From assembly GCA_009801085.1 (NCBI GenBank), contig VNWV01000002.1, forward strand, positions 4,092,001-4,156,000: DNA of 64,000 nt, in the 5' to 3' direction. The position numbers and the translations under genes were made by a program. This stretch comes from Lasiodiplodia sp. COLG20 (lineage: Eukaryota > Ascomycota > Dothideomycetes > Botryosphaeriales > Botryosphaeriaceae). The notes beneath the pieces were generated by a model. That model saw only the letters and a list, made by a program, of their open reading frames with translations, ran no database searches and was not told the origin of the DNA. Below are positions 3,882 through 48,108 of this stretch, piece after piece (the first letter of the stretch is position 1; every line of letters begins with the position of its first letter).

Positions 3882-4868
3882 ATGGCCATGTCCTTTGTGC
3901 CGAGTCGAACGGCCACAGTTTCACTCTCTCTCAACGGTGCGACTGCTTCCATGGCGAACGGCAACAATCAGAAAGTACGCTCTCTCATTCTTCCTTTTTC
4001 ACAAAGAATTGATAGCTTCCACTTACAGAGATACATTGACACGGCTTATAGGTCATTTTTCTCACGCATCCGCCCTTGGCTTTTCGAACGACGCACATTT
4101 CCTATCCTTCAAAGAAGCTTCGAAACCTCGAAAGTACTACCATCAAATCGCCTCGCACAGGGATCTCAGCGTAGGAATCGCGATTCAGAGATGCTTCGCC
4201 GACTCAGCTTAGTTCCAACAAGAAGCTGCCGCCGAATCCCTAGGCCTGTCGCCCAGACTCACTACATACGGCTTGGAGCCTTCGATTCCACTCTTTCCAA
4301 GAAGCCAGCCGTCTCAATTCCAGCCGGAGCTGCGTCTAGATGCTTCTACAACAGCCGTCTGCTCCGCACCAATTGCGATTTCGGTACCCTCTGCGACTGT
4401 AGAGAGTGTAGGGAAACCGATTGGAGGCCTGTATGTGACGTGTGCAAAGTCAGTCCTACGACGAAACAATATCCCGAATTTCAATGCGACCGCGATGGAA
4501 TCTGGTCCTACCACTTTCACTCCTTGTGCGATCACTGTCGGCCAAAGCTCCAGGAGGAGGAGAGGAAGGAAGCGTTAAAAATGGCTAGGTCCTTATACGA
4601 AGAACGCGAAGAGGAAAGAGGCAGGATGATGTCGCGTGTAAGAGCAATCGAGCTGACGGAACAAGTGCCCATCAGATATGCAGTCGACAAAGTCTTGGAC
4701 GTTGTTAAATCCCTGACTAGCTCATGCCACTCACGGCAATGGCACCAGCGGCGCGTTCTTGAATCATTTTCACAAGATCTAGAGATAGTGAAAGTGCGCA
4801 ACCGGTATATGTGTAACAAGGGCCGGGTTGATGCCATGGACTTTAAGCTCTGGTATTCCTGCAAATGA
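3882..4868 (+). CDS. hypothetical Cys-rich protein
   Basis: An open frame of 328 codons from ATG 3882. The recognisable part is residues about 165-225, where Cys/His pairs follow each other (CDCREC, RPVCDVC, FQCDRDGIW, HSLCDHC). This looks like a small zinc-binding module. A charged, probably helical segment follows, with EEERKEALKMARSLYEER at about 225-245. Such Cys-rich modules occur in uncharacterised ascomycete proteins. The first 100 codons are doubtful: possible splice sites lie at about 3976 and 4027, and another frame in 4050-4210 also looks protein-like, so the true N-terminus may be spliced differently. No function can be assigned. Confidence 0.5.
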   Translation: MAMSFVPSRTATVSLSLNGATASMANGNNQKVRSLILPFSQRIDSFHLQRYIDTAYRSFFSRIRPWLFERRTFPILQRSFETSKVLPSNRLAQGSQRRNRDSEMLRRLSLVPTRSCRRIPRPVAQTHYIRLGAFDSTLSKKPAVSIPAGAASRCFYNSRLLRTNCDFGTLCDCRECRETDWRPVCDVCKVSPTTKQYPEFQCDRDGIWSYHFHSLCDHCRPKLQEEERKEALKMARSLYEEREEERGRMMSRVRAIELTEQVPIRYAVDKVLDVVKSLTSSCHSRQWHQRRVLESFSQDLEIVKVRNRYMCNKGRVDAMDFKLWYSCK

Positions 4869-9169: not shown

Positions 9170-10175
9170 ATGCTCGCCAATATCACCACCCTCCTCCTCC
9201 TCGGCGTCGCCGCCACCGTCCGAGCCGTCCACCCTAAAAATCACATCTTCGGCGTCGTTCCCGCTGCAGCCAACAACAACGCGCTGCGGCCCCGCGCAGG
9301 CGCCGCCAGCACAGTTGCACCAGGTCCCACACCCACGCCCACGTCGACGGTCATCTCCTTCGCCTTCCCCGGCGGCCAAGAAGCGCCGCAGGTCATCATC
9401 CCGACGGCTGGCGTCAGCGGCTCCATCATCGACATCCAGTCCTCGCACACCACCCTCGCCTTCACGTGCGCGTCGGCGGTGCAGGACCCGCAGGCGTACT
9501 GGAACGGCAGCAGTCCGGGCGAGCTGTGCCCGTGGTTCACCACCGCGCCCGTCACCATCGTCTACGGCTCGGATTACTACGGCTACACCTTCAACTGGAC
9601 GTATGGGAGTGATTATTATCCGGCGCGCACGACGTTTGAGGATTATGAGCGCGTGGCGGCGGGGACGCTGGGCTGCGCGGTGACGGCGACGCAGGGGCAG
9701 CAGCCGGTTGCAAGCGTGGATCCGACGTGCACGGTTGATGTGACGAGTATTCCGGCTGGGTTGGGGCCGGCGGATGTGGTGCCGTCGTTGAGGTGCTGGT
9801 GGGAGGATGTGGCGGGGCCGCAGAAGAGCTTGTATTATCGGGAATGGGTAAGTTCTTTGACCCTCTCTTTCGTCGGGTTTGTACTGTACATGGCTGTGGG
9901 GAAGAGGAAGAAAAGATAGTAGTTGACTGATCCTCAATCTTTAGAATTCTGCCGCCTTCAACAGCTGCACGTCCTCCCTGACGGCTACTCCGACCACCGA
10001 GGCGACCGGCACTTACAAGGCTTCAAATGTTAGGTACTGGACGGTCACCGTTACTGAGGTTGCTGCTGGGGTTACTGTTCAATCGACGAAGTCTGCCTCT
10101 GCTGCGGCAACCGCCGATGTTGGTTTATGGGGAATTTTCATTGTCGGTCTTGTCGCTGCTTTTGGACTGCAATGA
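9170..10175 (+). CDS. secreted, probably GPI-anchored protein
   Basis: Two exons, 9170-9847 and 9945-10175, encode 302 aa. I chose ATG 9170 because it begins a good signal peptide, MLANITTLLLLGVAATVRAV. The upstream in-frame start would bury that peptide. The mature part has several Cys, two NxS/T sites (YWNGSS, FNWTYG) and a Pro/Thr-rich hinge (PGPTPTPTST). The second exon ends in a Ser/Ala-rich stretch followed by a short hydrophobic tail (GLWGIFIVGLVAAFGLQ), the layout of a GPI-attachment signal. It resembles uncharacterised ascomycete wall or surface proteins; no enzyme motif is visible. Confidence 0.75.
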
Positions 10176-19771: not shown

Positions 19772-20389
19772 GCGGACCGGAGGGAACCCACCGCTTGATG
19801 GATAAGTTGAGAATGTGGATGAAGTGTGTCTTGTGCGATCGGGGGCGGGGATGGGGCTGACTTTTCAGCTGGGCTTGTCAGCTCTCAGCTATCACAGTAG
19901 CTGCTGTGTAACGGTGGCTGTTATCGGCGCTTAATGTCCAGCAAATGAGACACGGTGATTGCCACCAAAGATCTCAACATTGAGGTATTGGAATTTGATA
20001 CCAATGGACATATACATATAAACGAAAAAGTCCTGTACAGATATGTATAGTCTTTCATTCAGCATTGACGTTCGGACGATAGCTTCAACTGCCCATGACA
20101 TCAGTGAAAAAATAAATCAACACCAGCCTTCGGCTGCAGTACCGCTGTATACGGCTCTGGGGCCAATCATGCATACGCCTTTTACCGAGGCTCGGGTGAA
20201 ACTTGGATTTATGCAATGTTCCCCGAAAACAAAAGGCCAAGTTGTTGCCTGAAAGTACTTCGGACTTTGGGTGGGGGCCTGCGCACCTGCGCGGATGGCC
20301 TTCTCAGCCTCGTCTCTTTTTGAGAGATCGCTTTTCTCAACCCCCCGCGCAAGCGCCTCACCACAAAGCACAGCTAAGCCGTTGGAAAT
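19772..20389. other. intergenic between divergent NLR and HET genes
   Basis: The region is the shared 5' flank of two divergent recognition-type genes. Apart from the repeat at 20069-20099, I see no coding or operator pattern. Confidence 0.5.
20069..20099 (+). repeat. left copy of a short repeat flanking HET gene 2
   Basis: The 31 bases from cgttcgga closely match the right arm of the inverted repeat at 23488-23516. Weaker similarity continues about 45 bases further right in both copies (an AATAAA-like run followed by ccttcggc / catcggcc). The two copies have the same orientation and enclose the HET gene. Confidence 0.6.
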
Positions 20390-23050: not shown

Positions 23051-23940
23051 AAAAAAAAAATAAGCTTTATTGCCAGAGTATCTTCAGCGTGGAACCGGAA
23101 CTCGGAGGCGAGGTGTCTCCGATTTCTTAAATCCCTAGCGCCGTATTTTTAGAACATCCGTATAGACATACATACGCTGTAGCAACAAGTGTTGCGGCTC
23201 CGTGATAATGCAGGAATCCTTGCGAACTGCCCAATAGCAGAAAGTATGATACCCACTCCATGCAACCGATCCCATTAAGAAACTCTGATACCCACAGCAT
23301 CCAACCGATCCGATCACCAAGCTATCACGCCGATGCCTACAGGGGGGTCTTGCAGCCGACGGCTAGCGTGAAGAACAGTAAGACCCCATCCGTAACTATA
23401 CCTCAGCTTTCTCTTTGAAAAATAACATATGTGGGTAGTTGAAGCTATCGTCCGGACGATAATGTCGAATTAAAAATTCTACATACACGTCCGGACGATA
23501 GCTTCAACTACCCACAACATGAGCAAGAATAAACCGCGCTAGCCATCGGCCGCGAGAGGGGACTGTAAGCGACGCATTGCAGAAGACAGTACCGGGAAAC
23601 AGGTCAACCAATCAACACGTGCATTCTCACCACGCCTCAAATTTGCCGGAACAGTTTCACAAATAACCTCAAACGACTCGTTGCGTACCACTCTGAAACA
23701 AGTTCGCAATAGCATTGCACTACGTTTCTCGCATCCGCATCCGCATCCGGAAAAGAAAAAATCTTCAAAGCCATAACCTTCACAAAAAATCGAAAAGTTG
23801 TGGTATCGAAACGAAGTTGAAACAATAGAGCATTCATTCCACCCAGCAAGCTCCCATCCCAAGCCAAACTACCACCCATGCTTTGCATCTCGCCGTCTAC
23901 CACCCCACTTCCGTCTCCACTTTTCCCCGCATCTCTAACC
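23051..23940. other. intergenic, contains an inverted repeat
   Basis: An A9-10 run follows the HET stop directly. The inverted repeat at 23430-23516 is the only structure I see. The remainder is the 3' flank of the peroxidase gene. Confidence 0.5.
23430..23516. repeat. 87-bp perfect inverted repeat (MITE-like)
   Basis: Arms of 29 bp (23430-23458 and 23488-23516) are perfect reverse complements around a 29-bp AT-rich centre. Each inner arm end is itself a palindrome, CGTCCGGACG. The right arm is repeated upstream of the HET gene at 20069. It could be a miniature element or a recombination scar; no convincing target-site duplication is seen. Confidence 0.7.
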
Positions 23941-36118: not shown

Positions 36119-36131
36119 CGGAGGACGTCCG
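36119..36131. promoter_or_regulatory. CGG-N7-CCG site, Dabb promoter, site 1
   Basis: cggaggacgtccg, ending 138 bp before ATG 36270. It is the inverted-repeat type bound by dimeric Zn2Cys6 regulators and shares the AG after CGG with four other sites in the cluster. Confidence 0.6.
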
Positions 36132-36152
36132 CAATCTGAGCGTTTTTGTTTG

Positions 36153-36165
36153 CGGAGTAACTCCG
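36153..36165. promoter_or_regulatory. CGG-N7-CCG site, Dabb promoter, site 2
   Basis: cggagtaactccg, 34 bp after site 1 (centre to centre) and 104 bp before the ATG. The 13-mer is nearly a complete palindrome (CGGAGT/ACTCCG around one base). Confidence 0.65.
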
Positions 36166-36269
36166 ACACGGTACAAATATCAATCAAGCCCCAATATTTT
36201 GGCTGGAACAAACAGATCTTCCAGAGAAGAAACCCTCCTCAACACTCAGCTTCTACATTGTTTTCGATC

Positions 36270-36717
36270 ATGACAGTTGTTCACATAGGTTTGAACTTGC
36301 ACCTATCCTTTGTCCCACGCCTTGGCGTTAATCCCTTCCAGTCCTCTTCAAATTCCGGCCCGATGTGCCACAGACGCTCAAAGACACGTTTGTCTCCGAG
36401 TTGAAGGCTCTGAAATCGCTTCCATGCGTGCAAGATCATCGACTCATCGTTGGTGGCCCCTCAATCACAGATCCCATCGAGCGCAGCCAAGGGTTTCAAA
36501 TTGCGCTTTTGAGCTTCCACAAGGACAAAGAGGCTCTGAGCGAGTACCAAGCAAGTAATGAACATCACAGGTGAGAAATTCTGGCTTCTGCATATAACAA
36601 AAACACTTCTCATCAGTGAACAGCGTTACCAGTACTTATCTTTGGCCCTTTAAGGAGGATGTGGTCCGGTTTGACTTTGAAGTGGATGAAGGAGATGAAT
36701 ACATGTGCCGGTTTTGA
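36270..36717 (+). CDS. stress-responsive A/B-barrel (Dabb) domain protein
   Basis: A small three-exon gene: 36270-36288, 36342-36570 and 36624-36717, giving 113 aa. Spliced, it starts MTVVHIVLFKFRPDVPQTLK, the opening strand and helix of the Dabb fold, and continues with LKSLPCVQDHRLIVGGPSIT. It ends with STYLWPFKEDVVRFDFEVD. The whole length is one domain, as usual for this family, which forms dimeric alpha+beta barrels. Family roles include stress proteins and small cyclase- or isomerase-like enzymes. Its two promoter sites tie it to the sugar-acid cluster, where a mutarotase-like or lactone-handling role could be imagined; that is inference only. Confidence 0.88.
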
Positions 36718-36883
36718 AGGATAAATAGCGGCATTGTTGTCAATTAATCACTGCTCTCCGAAGTCAAGCAGATGGAACATCAAGAAGTCTCGTCCTATTT
36801 GTTCTTGATTCTGAGTTTTACTATGTAGTCGTGAATCCTGACTGCACCTGGAACTATATGAGATGCACACCCGAGTAAACTCT

Positions 36884-37738
36884 CTAAGTACGACCAGTAG
36901 ACGACGTGAAACCCCCATCCACAACAATCTTCTGACCCGTAATATACCTCGCCTCATCCGACACCAAAAACAACGCCGCATTAGCCACATCCCACGCATC
37001 CCCCATCCGCCCCATCGGCACCTGCCCCTCCCTCATCCTCCTAAACTCCTCCACCCCACCCCCCTCCACCGGGAACCGCTCCGCCAAAGCCTGCGTATAC
37101 GGCGTATCCATCAACCCCGGCACAACCGTATTCAGCCGCACGCCCCTCCCCGCATACACCACCGCCGTCGCCTTGACGAACTGCATCACCGCCGCCTTCG
37201 TTGCGGAATACGCGACTTGCGGCTTGCCGATGTACCGCATCCCCGCCACGCTCGCCACGCACACGACGGCCCCGCCCCCCTCCTGCTTCTCCATGACCGG
37301 CAGCACGTGGTGGCACGCCAGGTACACGCTCTTCAGGTTGACGTCGACCTGCGCGTCCCACGTCGCCTCGTCCATCGTCGCCGGGCACCCCGGCTCGGAC
37401 CGCCCGACGTTCGCGACGAGGATGTCGATGCGGCCGTGCTGGGCGAGGCACGCGGCGACGAGGGCTTGGACGGAGGAGGAACTGGTGGCGTCGGTGGGGA
37501 CGACGGTGATGGTCCCGTGGCCTTCGCGCTCGATTGTTTCGCGTGTTTTGGCGGTCGAGGCGAGGGTGCGGTTGCCGCCGAAGATGTGGGCGCCCTGCCG
37601 CGCGAAGAGGACGGCGCAGGCGGCGCCGATGCCCCAGCCGGAGGAGCCGGGGGTCTGGCCGAGGCCGATTATGAGGGCGACTTTGCCTTTGAGGTCGTGC
37701 ATTGTGGGGGATGTGGTGGGAGAGGGATGGTGAGACAT
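36884..37738 (-). CDS. short-chain dehydrogenase/reductase of the sugar-acid cluster
   Basis: Intronless, 284 aa. The cofactor-binding region starts at about residue 15 (KGKVALIIGLGQTPGSSGWG). It is slightly unusual because the TGxxxGxG motif appears as GLGQTPGSSGWGIG. NVG is at about 110, the catalytic Ser is in VASVAGMRY, and YSATK holds the Tyr and Lys. The end ARYITGQKIVVDGG is standard for classical SDRs. It is divergent from the IlvD/Edd gene, sharing a 285-bp promoter that holds a CGG-N7-CCG site. In an oxidative sugar pathway an SDR would oxidise the aldose to its lactone or oxidise the later keto-deoxy acid; the sequence does not decide which. Confidence 0.9.
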   Translation of the reverse strand: MSHHPSPTTSPTMHDLKGKVALIIGLGQTPGSSGWGIGAACAVLFARQGAHIFGGNRTLASTAKTRETIEREGHGTITVVPTDATSSSSVQALVAACLAQHGRIDILVANVGRSEPGCPATMDEATWDAQVDVNLKSVYLACHHVLPVMEKQEGGGAVVCVASVAGMRYIGKPQVAYSATKAAVMQFVKATAVVYAGRGVRLNTVVPGLMDTPYTQALAERFPVEGGGVEEFRRMREGQVPMGRMGDAWDVANAALFLVSDEARYITGQKIVVDGGFTSSTGRT

Positions 37739-37895
37739 GAGAAAGGCGAGAATTTGGGTTAAACTGTTCTGATGGTAGTCGGACCGCAGCCTTCTTTCTT
37801 CTAGACTTATATTTCTCTAGAGGAAACTGGGGAAATCAACGACTTGGAGGGGGTTTGTGGGGTGGACCGGGGGTATGGGGGTATTCCGTTGCAGG

Positions 37896-37908
37896 CGGAG
37901 ATAATCCG
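37896..37908. promoter_or_regulatory. CGG-N7-CCG site in the SDR-IlvD divergent promoter
   Basis: cggagataatccg lies 157 bp from the SDR start and 115 bp from the dehydratase start. A further CCG-N7-CGG arrangement overlaps it at 37886-37898, giving three evenly spaced half-sites. Confidence 0.6.
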
Positions 37909-38023
37909 ACCTCGCACCTGACGCTGTCTTCTTAATTACCAGGCCTTCTTCTGAATTATCAGCTCTGCCATTTGCTGCTTTTGTTTCAATTTACTTCTCA
38001 TTCTCGCCCCCACAGTTGCAAAG

Positions 38024-39998
38024 ATGAGCCAGTCTGAAAGCAAAGAGACCAACCAGCAGAACTCAGATTACGATCTGTCTAAGCCTCTGGACTCGAAAGT
38101 TGGTCTGCGCCAGGGCTTAACATCATACGGCGATCCTCACTTTTCTCTTTTCCTCCGCAAAGTCTTCATCAAAGCCCTTGGGTATAGCGAAGATGCTCTG
38201 TCTCGGCCCATCGTTGGCATCGTCAACACATACTCCAGTTTCAACCCCTGCCATGCCAATATCCCACAGCTGATCGAAGCCGCCAAGAGAGGTGTCCAAC
38301 TGAACGGCGGACTGGCAATCGACTTTCCAACCATCAGCCTCCACGAGTCGTTCTCCTCGCCTACAAGCATGTTCTTGCGGAACCTGATGAGCATGGACAC
38401 TGAAGAGATGATCCGAGCACAACCGGTAGATTCGGTGATTCTGATTGGCGGTATGTAGTTCCCATTTCTACAAAGACCCTGCCGTACAACACCGTTCAAT
38501 AGAAATTCACTGACCACAAACCTACAGGCTGCGACAAGACGACCCCAGCACAACTCATGGGCGCCATCTCCGCCAACAAGCCCATCATCCACCTCGTAAC
38601 CGGCCCCATGATGCCCGGCAGCCACCGCGGGACCCGCGTCGGCGCCTGCACCGACTGCCGCAACAACTGGGCCAAGTTTCGCGCCGGCACGATCGACATC
38701 GAAGAAATCTCGGGCATCAACGAAGAGCTAGCTCCAACGGTGCGCCTCTCCCCCATCCTGCCCTCCCCTCCCCTCCCAGCCTGACTCCAGCCGCTTACAA
38801 GCCCACGTTACAGGCCGGAACATGCGGCGTCATGGGCACCGCCAGCACAATGGCCTGCCTCCTCGCCGCGCTCGGCCTCATGCCCCTCAAAGGCGCCACC
38901 GCGCCCGCCGTCTCCGCCGCACGCCTCCGCATCGCCGAAGAAACCGGCGCACAAGCCGTCCGCCTCGCCACGTCCAACAACCACCTCACGCCGCAAACCC
39001 TCCTCACCCGCTCCTCCTTCCTCAACGCCATCACCGTCCTCCAAGCCATCGGCGGCTCCACCAACGCCATCGTCCACCTCCTCGCCATCGCGAACCGGCA
39101 CCCAGGCCTCCTCGCCTCCCCCATCACCCTCGCCACCATCGACGCCATCGGCCGCCGCACACCCCTGCTCATCGACCTCAAGCCCAGCGGCGACGGGTAC
39201 ATGACCGACTTCCACAACGCCGGCGGCATGCCCGCGCTCCTCCACACGCTCTCACCCCTCCTCGACCTCAGCGCGCTGACCGTGACCGGCGCCACGCTCG
39301 GCGAGCTCCTCGCCCGCACCCCCTCCTCCCCCCACGCCAACAGCTGCATCCGCCCCCTCACCTCCCCCCTCCACCCAGCCTCCTCCCTCGTCATCCTGTC
39401 CGGCAACCTCGCCCCCCACGGCGCCGTCCTCAAAGCCTCGGCCAGCAAACTCCCGTCCCTCCTCTCGCACCGCGGGCCCGCCCTCGTCTTCGCCGGCGCC
39501 GCAGACATGGCGGCGCGCATAGACGACCCCGCGCTGCCGGTGACGGCGGATACCGTGCTAGTCCTGACGGGCGTCGGGCCGGTTGGTAATCCGGGGATGC
39601 CGGAGGCGGGGTTGATACCTATTCCGAGGAAGTTGGCGGAGGGGGGCGTGGTGGATATGGTGAGGGTGTCGGATGGGAGGATGAGCGGGACGGCGGGGGG
39701 GACGGTGGTGTTGCACGTCGCGCCTGAAGCGGCTGAGGGGGGAGGGGGGCTGGGGGTTGTGCGGGATGGGGATGTGGTGGTTTTGGATGTGGGGAGCAGG
39801 GTGTTGAGGGTGGAGTTGACGGAGGAGGAGATTGCGAGGAGGGTGGAGGAGCGGAGGGGGCGGTTGGAGGGGGAGAGGAGGGCGAGGGAGAGGGAGAGGG
39901 GGTATAGGGGACTGTATGTCCGGTCGGTGAATCAGGCGGAGCAGGGCGCGGATTTTGATTTCTTGACGGCGAGGGGCCCCGGGGCGGGGGCGGCTTAG
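38024..39998 (+). CDS. IlvD/Edd-family dehydratase (probable aldonate dehydratase)
   Basis: Exons 38024-38450, 38528-38739 and 38814-39998 encode 607 aa. The Fe-S ligand motifs of the family are all present: NPCHANIP, GGCDKTTPAQ (created by the first splice) and GTCGVMGTASTM. The C-terminal SDGRMSGTAGG block is also intact. Members dehydrate dihydroxy acids (branched-chain synthesis) or sugar acids such as arabinonate, xylonate, gluconate-6-P and galactonate. With a lactonase, an SDR, a transporter and its own regulator alongside, a catabolic sugar-acid dehydratase making a 2-keto-3-deoxy acid is more likely than the housekeeping mitochondrial enzyme. No clear mitochondrial presequence is visible. 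Its stop overlaps that of the convergent regulator gene. Confidence 0.9.
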
Positions 39999-42282
39999 GA
40001 GAGGTAGGGGATGGGCGTGATGAAGTCTTCGAACATGTCGAGCATGATGCTGTCCATGTCTACTGAGCTCAGGAAGTCGTCTTGGTTGAATATTCCTGGA
40101 AAGGCGTCGAACGTGTCTATGCGCTGGTCTCCTCCGATGTTGTTTGATGAATTGGGAATCGAGGCTGGGGCGTCGAAACCTGCCATTGGAAGCGGTGGCA
40201 GTGTCTCTGCGGCTGTTGGGGGATGAGACGGCTCTCCTGACTGTTCACCGACTTCTTCCGCGCGGAATTGAGAAGGCCGATACGCAGACGCCTTCATAGT
40301 TCGGCGGATGATGACGGCGGATATTTCTTCCAGAATGTCTCTACTCCGCTTTGCCCCTGGCCAGTGCTCGCCTGCTGCGCTGAGCATACTGAGACTGATG
40401 CGGACATCGTTGATGAGGACGTCAAGCTCTGTATTTCGGGCAATCTCGCCAACATTCCAGATGCAATAGAACATGGTGATGATACTCATGATGAGCGAAT
40501 GAAAAGTGATCCAGTTGTGGACGAGGAGGTCCCTTTTGTAGAGCTTGTCGAAGAGCCGCAAGCAGCTGATGGCGCTGTGGTGGCACTGTTTCAAAGATTC
40601 CACCGATGGTGATGGAATCGCTGGGCTAGGGCGGAGCAAGACCATGCGTAAACTGTGGTATCTCAGCTTGCACATGAGTTCGATGCACGTCTCACTATCT
40701 TCCGAACGGGGAATGTCCACGGCCCATTGGTCCAACTTTCGAAGCATGCTGCTTTGCCAGTCGTGGATGTCGATGATGTTGGGGTACGCATAGCTTGGAG
40801 CATCTCTCACAATGCTGTTTGCGACGTATTTAATCTCCGAGTTGAGTCTGGCCAACTCGAAAAGGTGAATCGAGTAAGTCATCTGTGATGGTGGGTCTGA
40901 TTGGCTCCTGGGAAATTGAGACGATGCAAGGTCGTCGTCGCCAATGTCCTGGGGAAGCTGAGATGGGTAAGATATAAGCAGTTGATCACGACTAACAAAG
41001 GTGGCTACTTACTCGGAGCTCGCATGCCTCGTCTCTTAGACCAATCGGCCTCCCCATCATGGTTGCGATGGTTCTATCAAGAGAAAGTACAACCCAGAAG
41101 ATCCTCGTCCTCATCTCCTGCTCGAGGAGTGAGATTCCGCTGATTTCACGCTGCAAGCCTACGTCGATCAAAGCCGCAATGCATTGGTAGTTCAAATACC
41201 AGGCATTCAGCTTCATGGATGGGCAGTGCAGCGTGAAGATCAAGAGTAGCAAGAGACTCTGGATGCCGTTGATGGAATTCTCTATGCACATTTGATCGAA
41301 GTACTGCATAGCAAAGGCACAGTAGCCTTCAGCGGGAAGCGATATCCTCAACCGCTGTGACAGAACAGTTGCTGCAATAGCCAGCACCATGTAGACCTGG
41401 AACATGCCGGTAGGGTCTGGAGAGTCGGACTCATACATGTGGTCAAGAAACCTTGTGAAGGCAGGCCGATGCAGAATCGGATACTGAGTGTGAATAACGT
41501 CAAAATAGATGGCGCTGAGATGGGTAGCTTGATCCCTGCTCGCAGCCACAGGACTGTTCGAGGCTTCCATCAGATCACACACAAAATGAAGATCATGGGT
41601 CGCAGATTGCGTGCGCCTCAAAATACGCGAATTTCTCGTGGTTGAGCCCGGAAGCATCAGCTTGGCAAGTAGATGGCCGCTGGACGGGCCGATGTACTTG
41701 GGATCCTGGCTCGCAGCCAGGGAGACCAGGCCAATCTCATGGGCAAGTGCAGGATTTGGAGGGCTAGAGAGAGGCACCACATCCGCGCATACCGGGGGTT
41801 GGCGCGGGGTAGAATTGAGGTCCACAGCTGCCGAAGGACTCGCCGCGGGATGTTCCCGAGGCTCGGACGGAGGCCGCGCCGCTGACTCTTCCACCCCGCT
41901 GACTTCGGAAGGCTCGCCATTGGGCGGCCCTTGGGAGAGGTCAATATCTGGGCATCTGGATTTGACAATCGACTCGAGCCAAGTTATGCGGGTCTGCAGG
42001 CGCGTCACGTAGCTACAGCAGAGTCAGCGCAGTACAGTCGAAGGCAGGGGAGATGCTACCTACGCGCGAGGCATATCTTTATTTCGGACACTGTCGCCAT
42101 CGACGCATTCTGCAGATGCCTTCCTGCAGTTGTTGCAACACGGAAAAGTGCCATCGCACTGCAGTCGTCAGCTCGCGAATCAGAAGGACGGTATTGTAAG
42201 CACTTACACGAATCTTGCGACGCTGGCAGCGGGAACACGCTAGCCCTCGGCGCGGATCGCGGCGCCGTAGATGATCAGACAT
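39995..42282 (-). CDS. Zn2Cys6 transcription factor, putative cluster regulator
   Basis: Exons 42282-42208, 42158-42064, 42012-41013 and 40957-39995 encode 710 aa. The zinc cluster is split by the first intron: ACSRCQRRKIR, then CDGTFPCCNNCRKASAEC, giving the six Cys in the C-x2-C-x6-C spacing. A linker and a short coiled-coil (RLQTRITWLESIVKS) follow, which would allow dimer formation. The Fungal_trans middle homology domain follows, with YFDVIHTQYPILHRPAF and later GRPIGLRDEACELR. Acidic, Ser-rich C-terminal sequence fits an activation region. Two CGG-N7-CCG sites lie just upstream of its own start, suggesting autoregulation. Confidence 0.9.
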
Positions 42283-42316
42283 GGTTGTGAGTGGTGATGG
42301 AGGAATGTGAGAGGGG

Positions 42317-42329
42317 CGGAGAAAACCCG
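42317..42329. promoter_or_regulatory. CGG-N7-CCG site, regulator promoter, site 1
   Basis: cggagaaaacccg, starting 35 bp upstream of the regulator ATG at 42282. This is close enough to lie in or near the leader, fitting feedback control. Confidence 0.6.
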
Positions 42330-42369
42330 CACGCTTTTAATTGTATGGCGGCAATCACGTGCATGAGTG

Positions 42370-42382
42370 CGGAGAGACTCCG
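42370..42382. promoter_or_regulatory. CGG-N7-CCG site, regulator promoter, site 2
   Basis: cggagagactccg, starting 88 bp upstream of the regulator ATG. Like the Dabb site at 36153 it reads CGGAG...CTCCG. Confidence 0.65.
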
Positions 42383-42941
42383 GACTAGCGTACGAACTGG
42401 GTAGTATTTACGACACATACTCGAGGTTCCTATCTTTACGGCAAAAGCAAGCCTTACAAAGAACGGCTCAAGCATCAGACCGAGCGAAGAACGTTTCACG
42501 TCGAGCCACCCCCCCGCCCGCACCTTTGTCGAGGCCATCCTCTGCGACAACGGCGTCTCACCGGACAATGCTTAGTCGGTGGCGATTTGCACGGCGTTAT
42601 TATGGGCTTGGAAAAGGCATCCGGCATGGGCTGCACTTAATTCCCGGGCCAAATCGAATTCACCCATAAGGAGAGAGAAGAGACTGGCATCCCATATGTC
42701 GAAGCAGAGACTAAGGCTTTGAATGGCGAGGCTATCTGTGCCGGAGTGGAGCCTATTATGTCAGAGTAATTATTTGAGAACTGCCTGAGCGATTCAATTA
42801 ATCTGTATCATTTCCGTTTGCTACATACATGTCAAAGTGATGCCAGATCATTGTAGCATGCGGCCTCGCCGAAACACTGTCATATCTCCGTCAATTTGCT
42901 TAACTACATGCTCACTTTTCTCTTACAGAATATCTCTGCCA

Positions 42942-44557
42942 TCAGATATCATATCTGTACGAAGGGTTCCCGTCCGCATCAGCGCCCATGTCGATGCTAC
43001 AATCGACTTCAGGCTTTCCGTATCTCCTATCTCTCGAATTATTCTCCAGATACAGCAGCAGAGACATTGCTATAGCAGCCACCGCAGTAGTAAATGTCAG
43101 GACACTGGACACAACATTTCCCATAAAATACTGCGGCGCCTGATTCTTCGGGTAGATATACGACGCCGCTATGCCCACGGCATGACCAACGGCCACGACC
43201 ACACCGACGCCGACGCCACTTTTCGTATCGCCGCCGAATGTACTAGGTATCCAAGCAAGCACGATGGGATATGCCATGTAGGTCCCCTAAGAGGAGGCAG
43301 TCAGTGTAGGCTATTAGTGAAAAGATGCGAGCGAGCTCACCACAACGGCGAGGAAGGCGCTCGCGTATCGGGCGCGATGTTCGTGCAACAGGCCAAGTAG
43401 AACGTACCCTGTGCCAGCGATAAGTCCGCCAACAGCGATCGGTGCGCCCCTGAGGCGGGTGCGGTCTGAGAGGTGTGCGGTGAGCAGGAGGCATACGTAT
43501 GCTGAAGCATATGCTGGGGCCGTCATCAGGTTGGCTTTGACGGATTCATAGCCAAGCGTGGCGACGATGGTGGGGAGAAACACGGACATGACCGCTAGGG
43601 ACAGCGACAATCCTGAGTAGATGAAAGCAAACAAGTAGAGACGGTAGTCGAGAAAAGCACTGGAAATGGTTAGCCTAAGTATCTTGCGTCCATCGGAATG
43701 GGAAGCGAACCCTTTCACCTGGTCGAGTTTAATGCCATCATCATGATTCCTCACAAATCTCGTCCGGCGGTGTAGGATGATCTGGTACTCCTCTTCGTTG
43801 AACCAGTGTGACTTCCCAGACTCTGGCCGCCCGGGCAGTATCCAAAACGTCAAGACACCACAAAGGACCGTCGGCAGCCCCTCTATGATGAACACGGCTT
43901 GCCACGACTCAACGAGCAGGCCATCTGCAGCACTCAGGCCATATGCCACGAGACCGGAAACCACTCCACTCAGCGCGCTCATGCCAGCGTAGGCGGCGAT
44001 GCGCAAAGAGAGTTCCGACTTGAGGTACCAGAAGCTCAGGTACAACGCACAGCCCGGCGCGAACGAAGCCTCGAACACGCCGAGGAAGAATCGGAGCGCG
44101 ATCAACCCGGCCGCGTTCGTGCAGCTTGCTTGCAGCGTGCTCATGGCCCCCCATCCCACGAGGCACCCGGCTAGCCATGTCGATGGTGGAACGACCTTCA
44201 GCATCAGGCCGCCAATGGTGCCGAAGAGGACGGTGCCGATGTAGAAAGTGGCCGATGCCCATTCGTATAGCGTAGGAGTAAGCCCAAGGTCTCGCTCCAG
44301 CCCGATTTCACGCACGTTGCCGAGATTGCTCCTTTACTGTTTATCAGCGAAGTCCTGTTGGAGGCTCTCTGAAATGGAACAAACCTGTCCATGTACGATA
44401 GCAGATACATGAGCATTACCCATGGTAGGATGACGCGGTCGAGCTTTCGAACAAGCCGTTTTTCCTTCTCGGCATCTTGGGCGACCGGTGGATTGCAGTT
44501 CATGTTGTCGACATTCTCCATGTGGAGCGCTGGGCGGTCTTTGCTGAAGGAAGTCAT
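42942..44557 (-). CDS. MFS transporter, Dal5/allantoate-permease type
   Basis: Exons 44557-44385, 44331-43341 and 43286-42942 encode 502 aa, the usual length. The Dal5-type (anion:cation symporter) opening is clear: KLDRVILPWVMLMYLLSYMDR, spliced to SNLGNVREIGLE. LRFFLGVFEASFAPG and WYLKSELSLR follow in the first half, and TYMAYPIVLAW opens the last exon. A short insert (KGFASHSDGRKILRL) in the loop before helix 7 may be retained intron-like sequence, but it is in frame. Relatives carry organic anions such as allantoate, nicotinate and sugar acids, consistent with uptake of an aldonate or lactone. It is divergent from the SMP-30 gene across 196 bp. Confidence 0.88.
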
Positions 44558-44635
44558 GACTAGTGCAAAAAGTAAATGCGGGGAAATTAGGAGACCAAAG
44601 TCCATCCAGGCGGGAATAAAAGGAGATACACCATG

Positions 44636-44648
44636 CGGGACGAATCCG
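44636..44648. promoter_or_regulatory. CGG-N7-CCG site, MFS-SMP30 promoter, site 1
   Basis: cgggacgaatccg in the 196-bp divergent promoter, 78 bp from the transporter start and 105 bp from the lactonase start. Confidence 0.55.
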
Positions 44649-44664
44649 ACCTTCCCCTCCGCTG

Positions 44665-44677
44665 CGGACTTTGTCCG
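44665..44677. promoter_or_regulatory. CGG-N7-CCG site, MFS-SMP30 promoter, site 2
   Basis: cggactttgtccg, 29 bp after site 1 and on the same helical face within about 3.5 bp of three full turns. Confidence 0.55.
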
Positions 44678-44753
44678 GCAAAAACGCGTCACTATTTAGA
44701 GTGAGGGAAATAACGGGCATCGCTGAAACCCAGCACATGCATACACATCCACC

Positions 44754-45695
44754 ATGGCGGGATACGCTTGGGCCACCGCGCCTCCAAAACACCTCACACC
44801 AGACGTCTTCACCACCCTCCCAACCTCCTTCCGCACCCTCGGCACCTCCGAGCACTCAACCAACCAGAAGCGCGGGCGCCCACTCGACTCCTTCCTCGAA
44901 GGCCCCGTCGTGGTCGACAACAAGACCCTGTACCTCGCCGACATCCCGTACGGCCGCATCTTCGCCGTCGACCTCGCCACGCGCGCCTGGTCGCTCGTCG
45001 TCCAGTACGACGGCGAGCCGAACGGCCTGGCGTGGCACCGCCAGCGCAACCAGCTCGTCGTCGCCGACTTCAAGCTCGGCATCCTTGGGATCGACCTCGA
45101 GACGCGCGAGGTCACGCCTATTATGCAGCGGTTCAACGGCGAGAGGCTGAAGGGGCCGAACGACGTCGTTGTTAGCGCGGACGGCGATATCTACTTCACC
45201 GACCAGGGTATGAGCGGCCTGCAGGACCCGAGCGGCCGTGTGTACCGGCTGCAGCATGAGGGCGGCCGCGTGGATGTGTTGCTGAGGAACTGTCCATCGC
45301 CGAATGGGCTCGTGCTTGACGGCGCTGGGACGAGTCTGTTTGTTGCTATGACGCGGGACAATGGCGTTTGGCACGTACCGCTGTATCCTGACGGCAGCGT
45401 GCAGCGTACGGGGAGATTCGCGAGCTATTACGGTATAGGCGGGCCGGATGGCATGGCGACTGACGAAGAGGGAAACATTTTTGTTGCGCATTCGACGCTC
45501 GGAGCTGTGTTCGTGCATGACAAACATGGGAACCCTGTGGTCCGGATAGATACTACTGCAGTCGGGAACAGCGCTACGAACATGACATGGGGTGGTGTGG
45601 ATCACAAGGCTCTTTTCATTGTTGAGAGCGAGAGCGGGACCATTCTTTGTGTTGAATGGCATTGTAAAGGTCTCATGTATCCTCCATGTAGATGA
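44754..45695 (+). CDS. SMP-30/gluconolactonase family lactonase
   Basis: Intronless, 313 aa, full length for the family. Metal ligands are visible in order: LEGPVV (Glu), LKGPNDVVV (Asn), CPSPNGLVL (Asn) and GGPDGMATDEEGN (Asp). These bind the divalent ion of the six-bladed propeller. The enzyme hydrolyses sugar lactones to aldonic acids, the step between a sugar dehydrogenase and the IlvD/Edd dehydratase. It has no signal peptide and is presumably cytosolic. Divergent placement with the transporter and two CGG-N7-CCG sites put it in the regulon. Confidence 0.92.
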   Translation: MAGYAWATAPPKHLTPDVFTTLPTSFRTLGTSEHSTNQKRGRPLDSFLEGPVVVDNKTLYLADIPYGRIFAVDLATRAWSLVVQYDGEPNGLAWHRQRNQLVVADFKLGILGIDLETREVTPIMQRFNGERLKGPNDVVVSADGDIYFTDQGMSGLQDPSGRVYRLQHEGGRVDVLLRNCPSPNGLVLDGAGTSLFVAMTRDNGVWHVPLYPDGSVQRTGRFASYYGIGGPDGMATDEEGNIFVAHSTLGAVFVHDKHGNPVVRIDTTAVGNSATNMTWGGVDHKALFIVESESGTILCVEWHCKGLMYPPCR

Positions 45696-46482
45696 TTAAC
45701 TGCAATTGGGAATTAGTAGAGCCTTTATGTGGTTCCGAGTCAGCTGGCACAATTGGATGGCTAGTGAGGCGACGAGCCTGAGAATCAGTTGTAATAAGTG
45801 ATGTAATGCCCTTTATTGCTGGGTGTCTCTATTGGAGGTGGAGGAAAACACCTCTCGGGCGAATGATGGCCTAATCTTGGCAGAGACAGTCAATACAAAA
45901 AGTCGAAAAGAAGATGTGGAGTCGTGTTAATTGGAGAAATTCATGTGAAGCACTGTTGAAGTCTAGAATCGTCATGACACAAAGCTAGCATGTGATGCAA
46001 AATCGTGCTCAGCCGCAGGGCTGAGTGCTATGGTGAAGCATGTGAAAGAGGCTGTGCAACCTTCGCGATCTATCCCACCGGGAGCTGAGCTGGATTAGAC
46101 TTGAATAACCACTCGGAGGCCTTTAATTCTTTCTCGGGTGTATTTGTTCGTCATAAGTTCATCTATCTCGTATAGTGTGAGTTCCACGAAGCCAGCGTGT
46201 TCGAAGAATCGTATCGTTACAAGAGCTGGATGAAGCTTTGCGTTTGAGAGGCTGTGCTCTCCGTAAGGAACAAGACGCCGCACCGCATGATTCTTAGTCT
46301 AAGTAAAAGTATACCCCCGCACTTTCTTTGAGGACGGGGTAGGATCCGCCACCGCTCACTAGTCACTCGATCCTGAGGCGGACCAATCTTTAAAAACACG
46401 ATCAGCCCTAGGCAATATTCCACCTCATTCCATACTTTTCTTGTTGCCTTTCTCAAGATTGCATCAAGCGACGCCCCACAAA
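45696..46482. other. intergenic, no gene seen
   Basis: Contains the lactonase 3' end and the HET3 promoter. No coding pattern. Confidence 0.5.
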
Positions 46483-48108
46483 ATGCCTGTCCGTGGAGAC
46501 AAGAAAGTGACCCTTTCACTAATGGATTTATCTCCTCCTGGGCTCTTTCACAATCGTCCGAGGGCTGCTGTTAGCAAGTCTGATACTATAGAACAGCTAT
46601 CAGCACATCAGGGCTCTTTACGCGCCCAGGTTATGGAAGAGGTGAAGTCACCCAAAGAAGACGGAAGTAATTTCGAGCCACAGTTTGAGTATCAACCGCT
46701 CTTACCTGCATGGAAGACCATACGGATCATCAAGCTCTTGCCAGGAAGTCCATCGGATCCACTCGAGTGTGAATTGGAGCACAGTCCAATCGACTCAACA
46801 GACCGCTATGAGGCGATCTCTTACGTTTGGGGCGAAAAGAAAGATTTCGTGGATCTTCTTTGCGAGGGAAAGAATCTGAAAATTCCTCGGAGCCTGTACG
46901 ACGCCCTTTTGCAGCTTCGATGTCCCTCCAAGCCCCGCAAACTATGGGCTGATGCAATCTGCATCAATCAAGACAAGGATTCAGAGAAAAACCACCAAGT
47001 TCCGTTGATGCGGACCATCTTCCGCCGCGCTGACAAGGTTCTGATCTGGCTCGGTCATCATGGCGCAGAGCTTGCGGAGTGTGCTTTTGGATTCGCCCGG
47101 CGCCTTTCCGACAAAACTTCCACAGAACTCCCCCCAGACACAAGTATCTGGCACTCTTTCTCTGTGATGTTTATGCAACCATGGTTCTGGAGAATATGGT
47201 GTTTTCAAGAGATCGTGCTGGCCCGGAAGGCTGAAGTGATGTGGGGCGAAGCCAAAATCGACTGGGAACCTTTGGGACGGATCGCAACGTGGATCGGAAG
47301 TACTAGGTACGATGTCATGGAAACTTTCCCATTCCATGGTGTCTACAATGCAAGTCTCATGTACACACTATCGAGCAGCCTCACCGGCGCGGATCCGGCA
47401 TCCTTCCTCCACCTTTTGATAGTGACTCAGCGCTTCAAATGCACAAGAAGCGTAGATCAGATCTATGCGCTCTTGGGCATCAAAACTTCCGACACGGATC
47501 CTGATGAGGGAGAATTTTACATGGTTCCGGATTACGGGAAGCACAAAGAAGATGTGTACGAAGAGTTCGCCGTCAGAGTCATGAATACCTCGCGAGACAT
47601 GACTCTACTCTCGGCAGTCCAACACGGCCCGCATCTCAGCGAAAGCACCAAGTCCTGGGTACCTCAATGGGACAAAAGTGACACGCGCACCGTCGTATCC
47701 GCCCATGCTCCAGGTATGACGTTCTCAGCCTCACGTCATCTCGAAAGATCACCGCCATCATTTCACGACCCGGCTTTGACCGTCCATAGACTTGAGGTCG
47801 ATAATGTTGAGCGTATAGTGGTTGGAGATGTTCTGGGCAGCAAACATGGAAAGGTGGTCAGACGGACTCTGGTATCACACGTGTACGCTACCAGCGCTTC
47901 ATCTGCAGTCAAAGGGTTATTGGCACGAAGCAGACATCAGCTCACTTTTTGCCCTGCCATAGTGAAGGCAGATATTGCTCGGATGCCCCATTTTACACTC
48001 AATAAATCTGATGTATGGTATCACAGTCCTCGATGCCGAGTGGATCACCCTAGTCCTGCTTACGCCTATCACAGCATTGTTTATGTCATGTCATGTACTC
48101 CACAATGA
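46483..48108 (+). CDS. HET-domain protein 3
   Basis: Intronless, 541 aa. I chose ATG 46483 (MPVRGDKK) as the first ATG in the frame. HET motifs are YEAISYVWGEKK near 110, LWADAICINQDKDSEKNHQ near 160 and WFWRIWCFQEIVLARKA near 240. The DQIYALLGI block follows near 325. It is shorter than many relatives and ends in a region (after about residue 450) that does not look conserved, so the 3' part could be truncated or diverged. No introns are apparent. Confidence 0.87.
   Translation: MPVRGDKKVTLSLMDLSPPGLFHNRPRAAVSKSDTIEQLSAHQGSLRAQVMEEVKSPKEDGSNFEPQFEYQPLLPAWKTIRIIKLLPGSPSDPLECELEHSPIDSTDRYEAISYVWGEKKDFVDLLCEGKNLKIPRSLYDALLQLRCPSKPRKLWADAICINQDKDSEKNHQVPLMRTIFRRADKVLIWLGHHGAELAECAFGFARRLSDKTSTELPPDTSIWHSFSVMFMQPWFWRIWCFQEIVLARKAEVMWGEAKIDWEPLGRIATWIGSTRYDVMETFPFHGVYNASLMYTLSSSLTGADPASFLHLLIVTQRFKCTRSVDQIYALLGIKTSDTDPDEGEFYMVPDYGKHKEDVYEEFAVRVMNTSRDMTLLSAVQHGPHLSESTKSWVPQWDKSDTRTVVSAHAPGMTFSASRHLERSPPSFHDPALTVHRLEVDNVERIVVGDVLGSKHGKVVRRTLVSHVYATSASSAVKGLLARSRHQLTFCPAIVKADIARMPHFTLNKSDVWYHSPRCRVDHPSPAYAYHSIVYVMSCTPQ

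What the first reader, a model, noticed from the sequence alone, without database searches (positions are those of the whole stretch)
36119..44677. Shared CGG-N7-CCG operator in every promoter of the cluster, including the regulator's own
Seen: seven inverted repeats CGG-N7-CCG, at 36119 and 36153 (Dabb), 37896 (SDR/IlvD), 42317 and 42370 (regulator), 44636 and 44665 (transporter/lactonase). Five have AG after the CGG, giving a consensus near CGGAGNNANTCCG. At equal base frequencies such a site occurs about once in 4096 bp, so about 0.5 would be expected in these 2 kb of promoter. Known: Zn2Cys6 dimers bind CGG triplets at fixed spacing set by the linker. Inference: the cluster regulator binds these sites and controls its own gene.
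Basis: partly seen in the sequence, partly recalled or inferred. Interest (0 to 1): 0.88.

Follow-up and report, generated by a model that had tools for sequence, protein, structure and literature searches.

The report
Shared operators of fungal sugar-acid cluster
Every promoter of a fungal sugar-breakdown gene cluster, including that of its own regulator gene, carries the same paired DNA signal at one fixed spacing, far beyond chance, so one regulator probably controls the whole set together; binding itself has not been shown.

Summary
Observation confirmed. The seven CGG-N7-CCG sites stand at the stated coordinates, in all four start regions of a six-gene cluster (Dabb, SDR, IlvD-type dehydratase, Zn2Cys6 regulator, MFS transporter, SMP-30 lactonase) of a Lasiodiplodia-like fungus. 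These 1.4 kb hold 8 sites at N7 and at most 1 at any other spacing 0-15; 0 of 5000 dinucleotide shuffles reach 7; the genome-wide rate predicts 0.42. Tandem pairs of that form occur 13 times in 43.5 Mb, 3 of them here. A second cluster in the same genome, with a paralogous regulator and Dabb gene, has N7 sites in the three promoters examined, regions I set after seeing the sites (4; shuffle mean 0.24). Regulator, Dabb and dehydratase genes are linked in many other fungi. Best reading: operators of the cluster's own regulator, with autoregulation. The surprise is the spacing: the nearest solved relative, PPR1, aligns without gaps through the linker yet is reported at CGGN6CCG, and no N6 site lies in these promoters. 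Binding is untested.

The parts
36119..36131 (+). CGG-N7-CCG site 1, Dabb promoter (CGGAGGACGTCCG)
   Evidence: 138 bp before the Dabb ATG
36153..36165 (+). CGG-N7-CCG site 2, Dabb promoter (CGGAGTAACTCCG)
   Evidence: tandem pair with site 1
37896..37908 (+). CGG-N7-CCG site in the divergent SDR/IlvD promoter (CGGAGATAATCCG)
   Evidence: 157 bp before the SDR ATG, 115 bp before the IlvD ATG
42317..42329 (+). CGG-N7-CCG site, regulator promoter, proximal (CGGAGAAAACCCG)
   Evidence: 34 bp before the regulator ATG
42370..42382 (+). CGG-N7-CCG site, regulator promoter, distal (CGGAGAGACTCCG)
   Evidence: 87 bp before the regulator ATG; pair with 42317
42551..42563 (+). eighth, off-consensus CGG-N7-CCG site upstream of the regulator, possibly chance
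44636..44648 (+). CGG-N7-CCG site in the divergent MFS/lactonase promoter (CGGGACGAATCCG)
   Evidence: pair with 44665
44665..44677 (+). CGG-N7-CCG site in the divergent MFS/lactonase promoter (CGGACTTTGTCCG)
   Evidence: pair with 44636
36270..36717 (+). Dabb gene (PF07876), 113 aa, 3 exons
   Evidence: gene model; Pfam; alpha-beta fold predicted for the Botryosphaeria homologue
36884..37738 (-). SDR dehydrogenase gene, 284 aa, 1 exon
38024..39998 (+). IlvD/EDD-family sugar-acid-type dehydratase gene, 607 aa, 3 exons
39995..42282 (-). Zn2Cys6 + Fungal_trans regulator gene, 710 aa, 4 exons
   Evidence: nearest solved DNA-binding domain PPR1
42942..44557 (-). MFS transporter gene, 502 aa, 3 exons
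44754..45695 (+). SMP-30/gluconolactonase-family gene, 313 aa, 1 exon

Best explanation
The sites are operators for the cluster's own Zn2Cys6 regulator. A regulator dimer reads the two inverted CGG triplets seven base pairs apart (core CGGR-N5-YCCG) in all four start regions, probably as an inducer-dependent activator. The genes would encode uptake (MFS), oxidation of an aldose (SDR), lactone opening (SMP-30) and dehydration of the sugar acid (IlvD type) plus a Dabb protein, that is, a non-phosphorylative oxidative sugar pathway. Two sites in the regulator's own promoter make it part of its regulon. Shown: sites, their spacing specificity and rarity, gene models and domains, linkage of genes in other fungi, repetition of N7 in a paralogous cluster. 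Inferred: binding by this protein, dimer, activation, autoregulation and its sign, the substrate.
For: Spacing-specific excess in 4 of 4 promoters; genome background 0.42 expected; 3 of the genome's 13 tandem CGGR-N5-YCCG pairs lie in this 8.6-kb stretch. Zinc cluster C-X2-C-X6-C-X6-C-X2-C-X6-C with R22/K23 at the Gal4 K17/K18 positions, invariant in 26 of 26 aligned sequences, the window's and 25 chosen from the 120 listed homologues (contact roles from passages of PMC4245848). Paralogous C3 cluster: regulator 31-36% identical in pieces and a Dabb paralogue; N7 sites in the promoters of Dabb (a pair, starts 27 bp apart), regulator/Ldh_2 and class II aldolase: 4 in 1187 bp, shuffle mean 0.24, 0 of 5000 reach 4. 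Linked regulator, Dabb and IlvD homologues in other fungi.
Against: The DNA-binding domain and linker align without gaps with PPR1 (25 of 63 identical), whose site is given as CGGN6CCG (PMC11534201 passage); N6 is absent here (0). The closest regulator paralogue (C1, about 41%) has no N7 site between the gene before it and its likely ATG; two N7 sites lie just after that ATG. Three other Dabb loci give no clear support: C23 and C4 have no N7 site in the 500 bp before the likely ATG; C67 has two (-346, -214) but N9 also two there. The other IlvD locus on C78 has none in its 500 bp. None of 12 loci (9 places) with DHDPS-family matches has a CGGR-N5-YCCG site. C3 sites share N7 but not the R/Y inner bases or the preceding G. 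No binding or expression data.
Confidence: 0.75

Rival explanations
1. The sites are real operators but are bound mainly by another Zn2Cys6 protein (a paralogue such as those at C3 or C1, or a PPR1/UaY homologue), with the local regulator acting elsewhere.
For: The genome has many related regulators (60 matches at E <= 0.001, some of them exons of one gene); the PPR1-like linker would predict N6, not N7; the C3 cluster also has N7 sites.
Against: The sites surround this regulator and sit in its own promoter; 3 of 13 tandem pairs of the genome are here; the C3 cluster has its own regulator and different inner bases; no N6 sites in the four promoters.
Confidence: 0.15
2. A variant of the best explanation, not exclusive of it: the local regulator binds the sites, but the two sites next to its own ATG serve negative autoregulation rather than activation.
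For: The proximal site lies only 34 bp before the ATG, the nearest of the seven, and the distal one 87 bp; a TATA-like AT-rich stretch lies between them (read by eye).
Against: A similar pair arrangement stands at structural genes; transcription starts are unknown; the distance to the ATG alone does not give the sign.
Confidence: 0.3
3. Chance or base composition: CGG-N7-CCG is common in this genome.
For: One site per 3.35 kb genome-wide; window total only mildly above shuffles; the consensus was chosen after seeing the sites.
Against: 0 of 5000 shuffles reach 8 even over 63 spacing/orientation combinations; genome counts do not exceed the reversed control patterns; repeated in the paralogous cluster.
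Confidence: 0.02

Closest known systems
Ppr1 of S. cerevisiae and C. albicans (CGGN6CCG)
   Same: Zn2Cys6 DNA-binding domain aligning without gaps through the linker, 25 of 63 identical; inverted CGG triplets; pathway regulator
   Different: Ppr1 is given with six base pairs (PMC11534201, one passage); these promoters have seven and none at six. The UaY site (N6) is recalled; one search found no paper holding 5 of its 6 terms.
RhaR of A. nidulans (L-rhamnose regulator, CGG-X11-CCG)
   Same: Zn2Cys6 regulator of a sugar pathway, numbered next to its pathway gene lraC; K at the Gal4 K18 position and R at K17 (PMC4245848 abstract and passages)
   Different: Spacing 11 rather than 7; its dehydratase LraC is of another family (recalled); no homology test between the two proteins was made here
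FUR1 of T. reesei (L-fucose regulator)
   Same: Zn2Cys6-type regulator (class recalled) of a sugar pathway started by a dehydrogenase; NAD(P)-dependent oxidoreductase genes are often near it (PMC12370193 abstract and passages)
   Different: FUR1 resembles XYR1 and its proposed dehydratase is LGD1; the main text has no word beginning with CGG
Caulobacter xylose operon (Weimberg/Dahms pathways)
   Same: SDR dehydrogenase (XylB), lactonase and IlvD/EDD dehydratase (XylD) encoded together (PMC9795676 passages)
   Different: Bacterial; here a fungal cluster with a Zn2Cys6 regulator and a Dabb gene, without the later enzymes; the paper describes this kind of pathway as found in archaea and bacteria
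KojR of A. flavus
   Same: Cluster-specific Zn2Cys6 regulator with a shared palindromic motif in cluster promoters (PMC9961346 passages)
   Different: 11-bp motif CGRCTWAGYCG; kojic acid production; autoregulation stated as not known

Membership tests
Zn2Cys6 (Gal4-type) regulator | C-X2-C-X6-C-X5-12-C-X2-C-X6-8-C zinc cluster | tested here: met
   residues 16-43, C-X2-C-X6-C-X6-C-X2-C-X6-C; PF00172 and PF04082 above cut-off
Zn2Cys6 (Gal4-type) regulator | binds paired CGG triplets as a dimer | not testable with these tools
   sites of the right form are present; no binding data
PPR1-type regulator (N6) | DNA-binding domain and linker of PPR1 type | tested here: met
   ungapped alignment with 1pyi over residues 14-76, E 5.9e-13, best of the PDB sequences
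PPR1-type regulator (N6) | CGG-N6-CCG target sites in controlled promoters | tested here: not met
   0 N6 sites and 8 N7 sites in the four promoters
Non-phosphorylative oxidative sugar pathway (Weimberg/Dahms-like) | sugar dehydrogenase, lactonase and sugar-acid dehydratase encoded together | tested here: met
   by family only: SDR, SGL and ILVD_EDD domains; IlvD over the PRK06131 cut-off, under that of L-arabinonate dehydratase; cysteines 76, 144, 217 with the same spacings (68, 73) as the Fe-S ligands of Rhizobium L-arabinonate dehydratase. Substrates untested
Non-phosphorylative oxidative sugar pathway (Weimberg/Dahms-like) | aldolase, or second dehydratase plus semialdehyde dehydrogenase, co-regulated | tested here: inconclusive
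   none among the six cluster genes; no CGGR-N5-YCCG site in 12 loci (9 places) with DHDPS-family matches; other aldolase families not searched
Conserved metabolic gene cluster | same genes linked in other species | tested here: met
SDR, MFS and lactonase neighbours not tested

The most novel reading that the evidence does not exclude
A subgroup of PPR1-like fungal regulators, tied to Dabb-containing sugar clusters, reads CGG-N7-CCG with a linker of PPR1 length, so the spacing was shifted by one base pair by something other than linker length (for example coiled-coil register); sister regulators in one genome keep the spacing but differ in the bases inside and around the triplets, which would keep their regulons apart.
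Probability: 0.4. Interest if true: 0.55.

Novelty: new variant of a known kind. Interest (0 to 1): 0.42.

Why it matters
It gives a specific, cheap-to-test operator for a fungal cluster that is linked in many species and looks like the bacterial oxidative sugar pathways; my three searches for such a cluster listed 8, 5 and 0 papers, and none of their titles or shown abstract starts describes it. It also offers a natural test of the rule that the linker of a Zn2Cys6 protein sets the spacing of its half-sites: same linker length as PPR1, one base pair more. If right, the motif can be used to find the rest of the regulon, including the missing aldolase step.

Tried and rejected
Regulon outside the cluster: for the 10 tandem CGGR-N5-YCCG pairs elsewhere I fetched stretches covering 10 of 10 (two more stretches fetched there were chosen for single sites) and listed their reading frames, but checked families only at C78 and C56. 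C78:2046500 lies upstream of an Ldh_2 gene near a sugar transporter gene, C56:153388 before an amidohydrolase gene with an MFS gene nearby; with a control count of 14 pairs these may be chance, so I do not claim them. DHDPS-family matches as the missing aldolase: no CGGR-N5-YCCG site in 12 of 12 loci, 9 places. Closest regulator paralogue (C1): its first N7 sites fall after the likely ATG, so no support. Other Dabb loci: in the 500 bp before the likely ATG, C23 0, C4 0, C67 2 N7 sites, the last beside 2 N9 sites; other IlvD locus on C78: 0. L-fucose (FUR1) as the pathway identity: the paper describes a regulator of another type. Footprinting in other fungi: no fungal genome collection with context was available to me; only protein neighbours could be used.

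Papers: strings for N7 gave 0 papers (six spellings without brackets; forms with brackets cannot be searched); N6 strings gave 1. No paper held 5 of 6 terms on the UaY site. 'Not in print' is claimed only for those spellings in that library. Searches gave listings; of the papers listed there I read passages of PMC5559640, PMC8929692, PMC4245848 and PMC9961346.

Dabb structure: a confident model of the B. dothidea homologue matches hydroxynitrile lyase, olivetolic acid cyclase and other Dabb proteins; this does not identify its reaction, and a mutarotase role remains a guess.

The three C3 regions were set after seeing the N7 positions; the aldolase region was taken from 9652, and its likely ATG was then placed at 9785 (site at 9869, 84 bp upstream; the 500 bp before that ATG hold 2 N7 sites). 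A fourth C3 gene (ATP-grasp-like, L057:3504-4391) with N7 sites at 4509 and 4666 near its start was not counted.
Full report
What is there. The window lies in a 43.5-Mb genome. The regulator is 90% identical to a Lasiodiplodia theobromae fragment covering 65% of it and 72% identical to a Botryosphaeria dothidea protein; the dehydratase is 91-92% identical to three Lasiodiplodia proteins. The source is a Lasiodiplodia or a close relative. Six genes stand together from 36270 to 45695: Dabb (+), SDR (-), IlvD-type dehydratase (+), Zn2Cys6 regulator (-), MFS transporter (-) and SMP-30/gluconolactonase (+). Domains were confirmed with Pfam. Their starts share four regions: upstream of Dabb, the divergent SDR/IlvD region, upstream of the regulator, and the divergent MFS/lactonase region.

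Observation. Over the four regions CGG-N7-CCG occurs eight times; CGG-Nk-CCG for every other k from 0 to 15 occurs 0 or 1 time, and the other orientations counted do not exceed 3. In 5000 dinucleotide-preserving shuffles of the same regions (1410 bp) the N7 count averages 0.27 and never exceeds 4; the best of 63 spacing and orientation combinations reaches 7 once and never 8. The genome has 13001 such sites, one per 3.35 kb, against 18274 for the reversed control pattern, so 0.42 would be expected.

A better description of the site. CGGR-N5-YCCG matches 7 of 7 and is symmetrical, as a dimer site would be; 5 of 7 are CGGA-N5-TCCG. Three of the four regions carry two sites with 16, 21 and 40 bp between them. 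Such tandem pairs of CGGR-N5-YCCG (10 to 40 bp apart) occur 13 times in the whole genome, control 14, and 3 of the 13 are in this cluster, where 0.002 to 0.003 would be expected. In 7 of 7 a G stands before the left CGG; this was seen after the fact and is unexplained. The eighth site, 42551, has neither feature.

Who binds. The regulator has a standard zinc cluster (residues 16-43), with R22 and K23 at the positions of Gal4 K17 and K18, the two lysines that make the base contacts; RhaR has the same K17-to-R change (passages of PMC4245848). Both residues are invariant in 26 of 26 aligned sequences, the window's regulator and 25 chosen from its 120 listed homologues. Its best solved relative is PPR1 (1pyi, E 5.9e-13), aligned without gaps from the first cysteine through the linker, 25 of 63 identical. 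Ppr1 is given the motif CGGN6CCG (one passage of PMC11534201). Here no N6 site exists in the four regions. Either the spacing differs by one base pair despite equal linker length, or another protein binds. I favour the first because of the next observation.

An internal replicate, with its limits. A search of the genome for regulator and Dabb relatives showed one other place with both: contig C3, about 474 to 481 kb. It has a Dabb paralogue, a regulator paralogue (31 to 36% identical in pieces), an Ldh_2 gene and a class II aldolase-family gene, and between Dabb and regulator an ATP-grasp-like gene. Its promoters also carry N7 sites: a pair with starts 27 bp apart before Dabb, one between regulator and Ldh_2, and one 84 bp before the likely aldolase ATG. 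Four N7 sites stand in the 1187 bp examined against a shuffle mean of 0.24, 0 of 5000 reaching 4, while each other CGG-Nk-CCG spacing from 0 to 20 gives 0 or 1. Over the whole 14 kb N7 is also the commonest spacing, 10 against at most 6. CGG-N7-CCG pairs occur 198 times in the genome, control 395, so a pair in a given 500-bp promoter has an expectation of about 0.002. The C3 regions were defined after the positions were seen, and the inner bases differ from those in the window. Other paralogues give no support: the closest regulator paralogue, at C1, has its first N7 sites after its likely start codon, the C23 and C4 Dabb loci and the C78 IlvD locus have none in the 500 bp before the ATG, and the C67 Dabb locus has two beside two N9 sites.

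Conservation of the cluster. Locus tags show close neighbours: SLS57_007725/007726 (Botryosphaeria), CDV31_005846/005845 and BHE90_006768/006769 (Fusarium), NLU13_2571/2573/2569 (Sarocladium), CIB48_g537/g535 (Xylaria), PMIN06_002285/002283 (Paraphaeosphaeria). The lists are capped at 120, so these are lower bounds. The promoter sequences of these could not be fetched here, and linkage of the SDR, MFS and lactonase genes was not tested.

What the cluster does. An SDR dehydrogenase, a lactonase and an IlvD/EDD dehydratase in one operon are the layout of the Caulobacter xylose genes, a kind of pathway described as found in archaea and bacteria (passages of PMC9795676). The dehydratase scores over the cut-off of the PRK06131 subfamily and second best on L-arabinonate dehydratase, below that cut-off; its second-best solved relative is an L-arabinonate dehydratase. 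Its cysteines 76, 144 and 217 have the same spacings, 68 and 73, as the three Fe-S ligands of the Rhizobium enzyme. The most likely function is oxidation, lactone opening and dehydration of an aldose or its acid. The sugar is unknown; the Dabb protein has the alpha-beta barrel fold and its reaction is unknown; the next enzyme is not in the cluster and was not found by the motif among the DHDPS-family loci.

How it probably works (inferred). A regulator dimer, likely switched by a pathway intermediate, binds one or two operators in each start region and activates the divergent and single genes together. Its own promoter has two sites, 34 and 87 bp before the ATG, so it would control itself; the sign is open.

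Verdict. The kind of system (a cluster-specific Zn2Cys6 regulator with shared CGG operators) is well known; the N7 spacing with a PPR1-type linker, and its repetition in a sister cluster, make it a variant worth a direct test.

Noticed in passing
L057/L058 (G000:C3:471500-485500): Second sugar-type cluster with a paralogous regulator, a Dabb paralogue, an Ldh_2 gene and a class II aldolase-family gene, with N7 sites in the promoters examined.
   Followed up: partly
L019 (G000:C78:2042000-2051000), sites at 4501 and 4524: Tandem CGGA-N5-TCCG pair upstream of an Ldh_2-family gene near a sugar transporter gene; possible regulon member or chance.
   Followed up: partly
L026 (G000:C56:149000-158000), sites at 4389 and 4413: Tandem CGGR-N5-YCCG pair just before an amidohydrolase gene, with an MFS gene nearby.
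   Followed up: partly
23430-23516, also 20069-20096, and L057:4707-4777: Inverted repeat with 42-nt arms and a 3-nt loop; one arm sequence recurs at 20069 with 3 mismatches, and a similar inverted repeat stands in the C3 cluster, suggesting a small dispersed repeat element.
   Followed up: partly
36119-44677: In 7 of 7 consensus sites the base before the left CGG is G on the + strand, whichever way the genes run; unexplained.
   Followed up: no
46441-48108: Heterokaryon-incompatibility (HET, PF06985) domain reading frame just outside the cluster.
   Followed up: no
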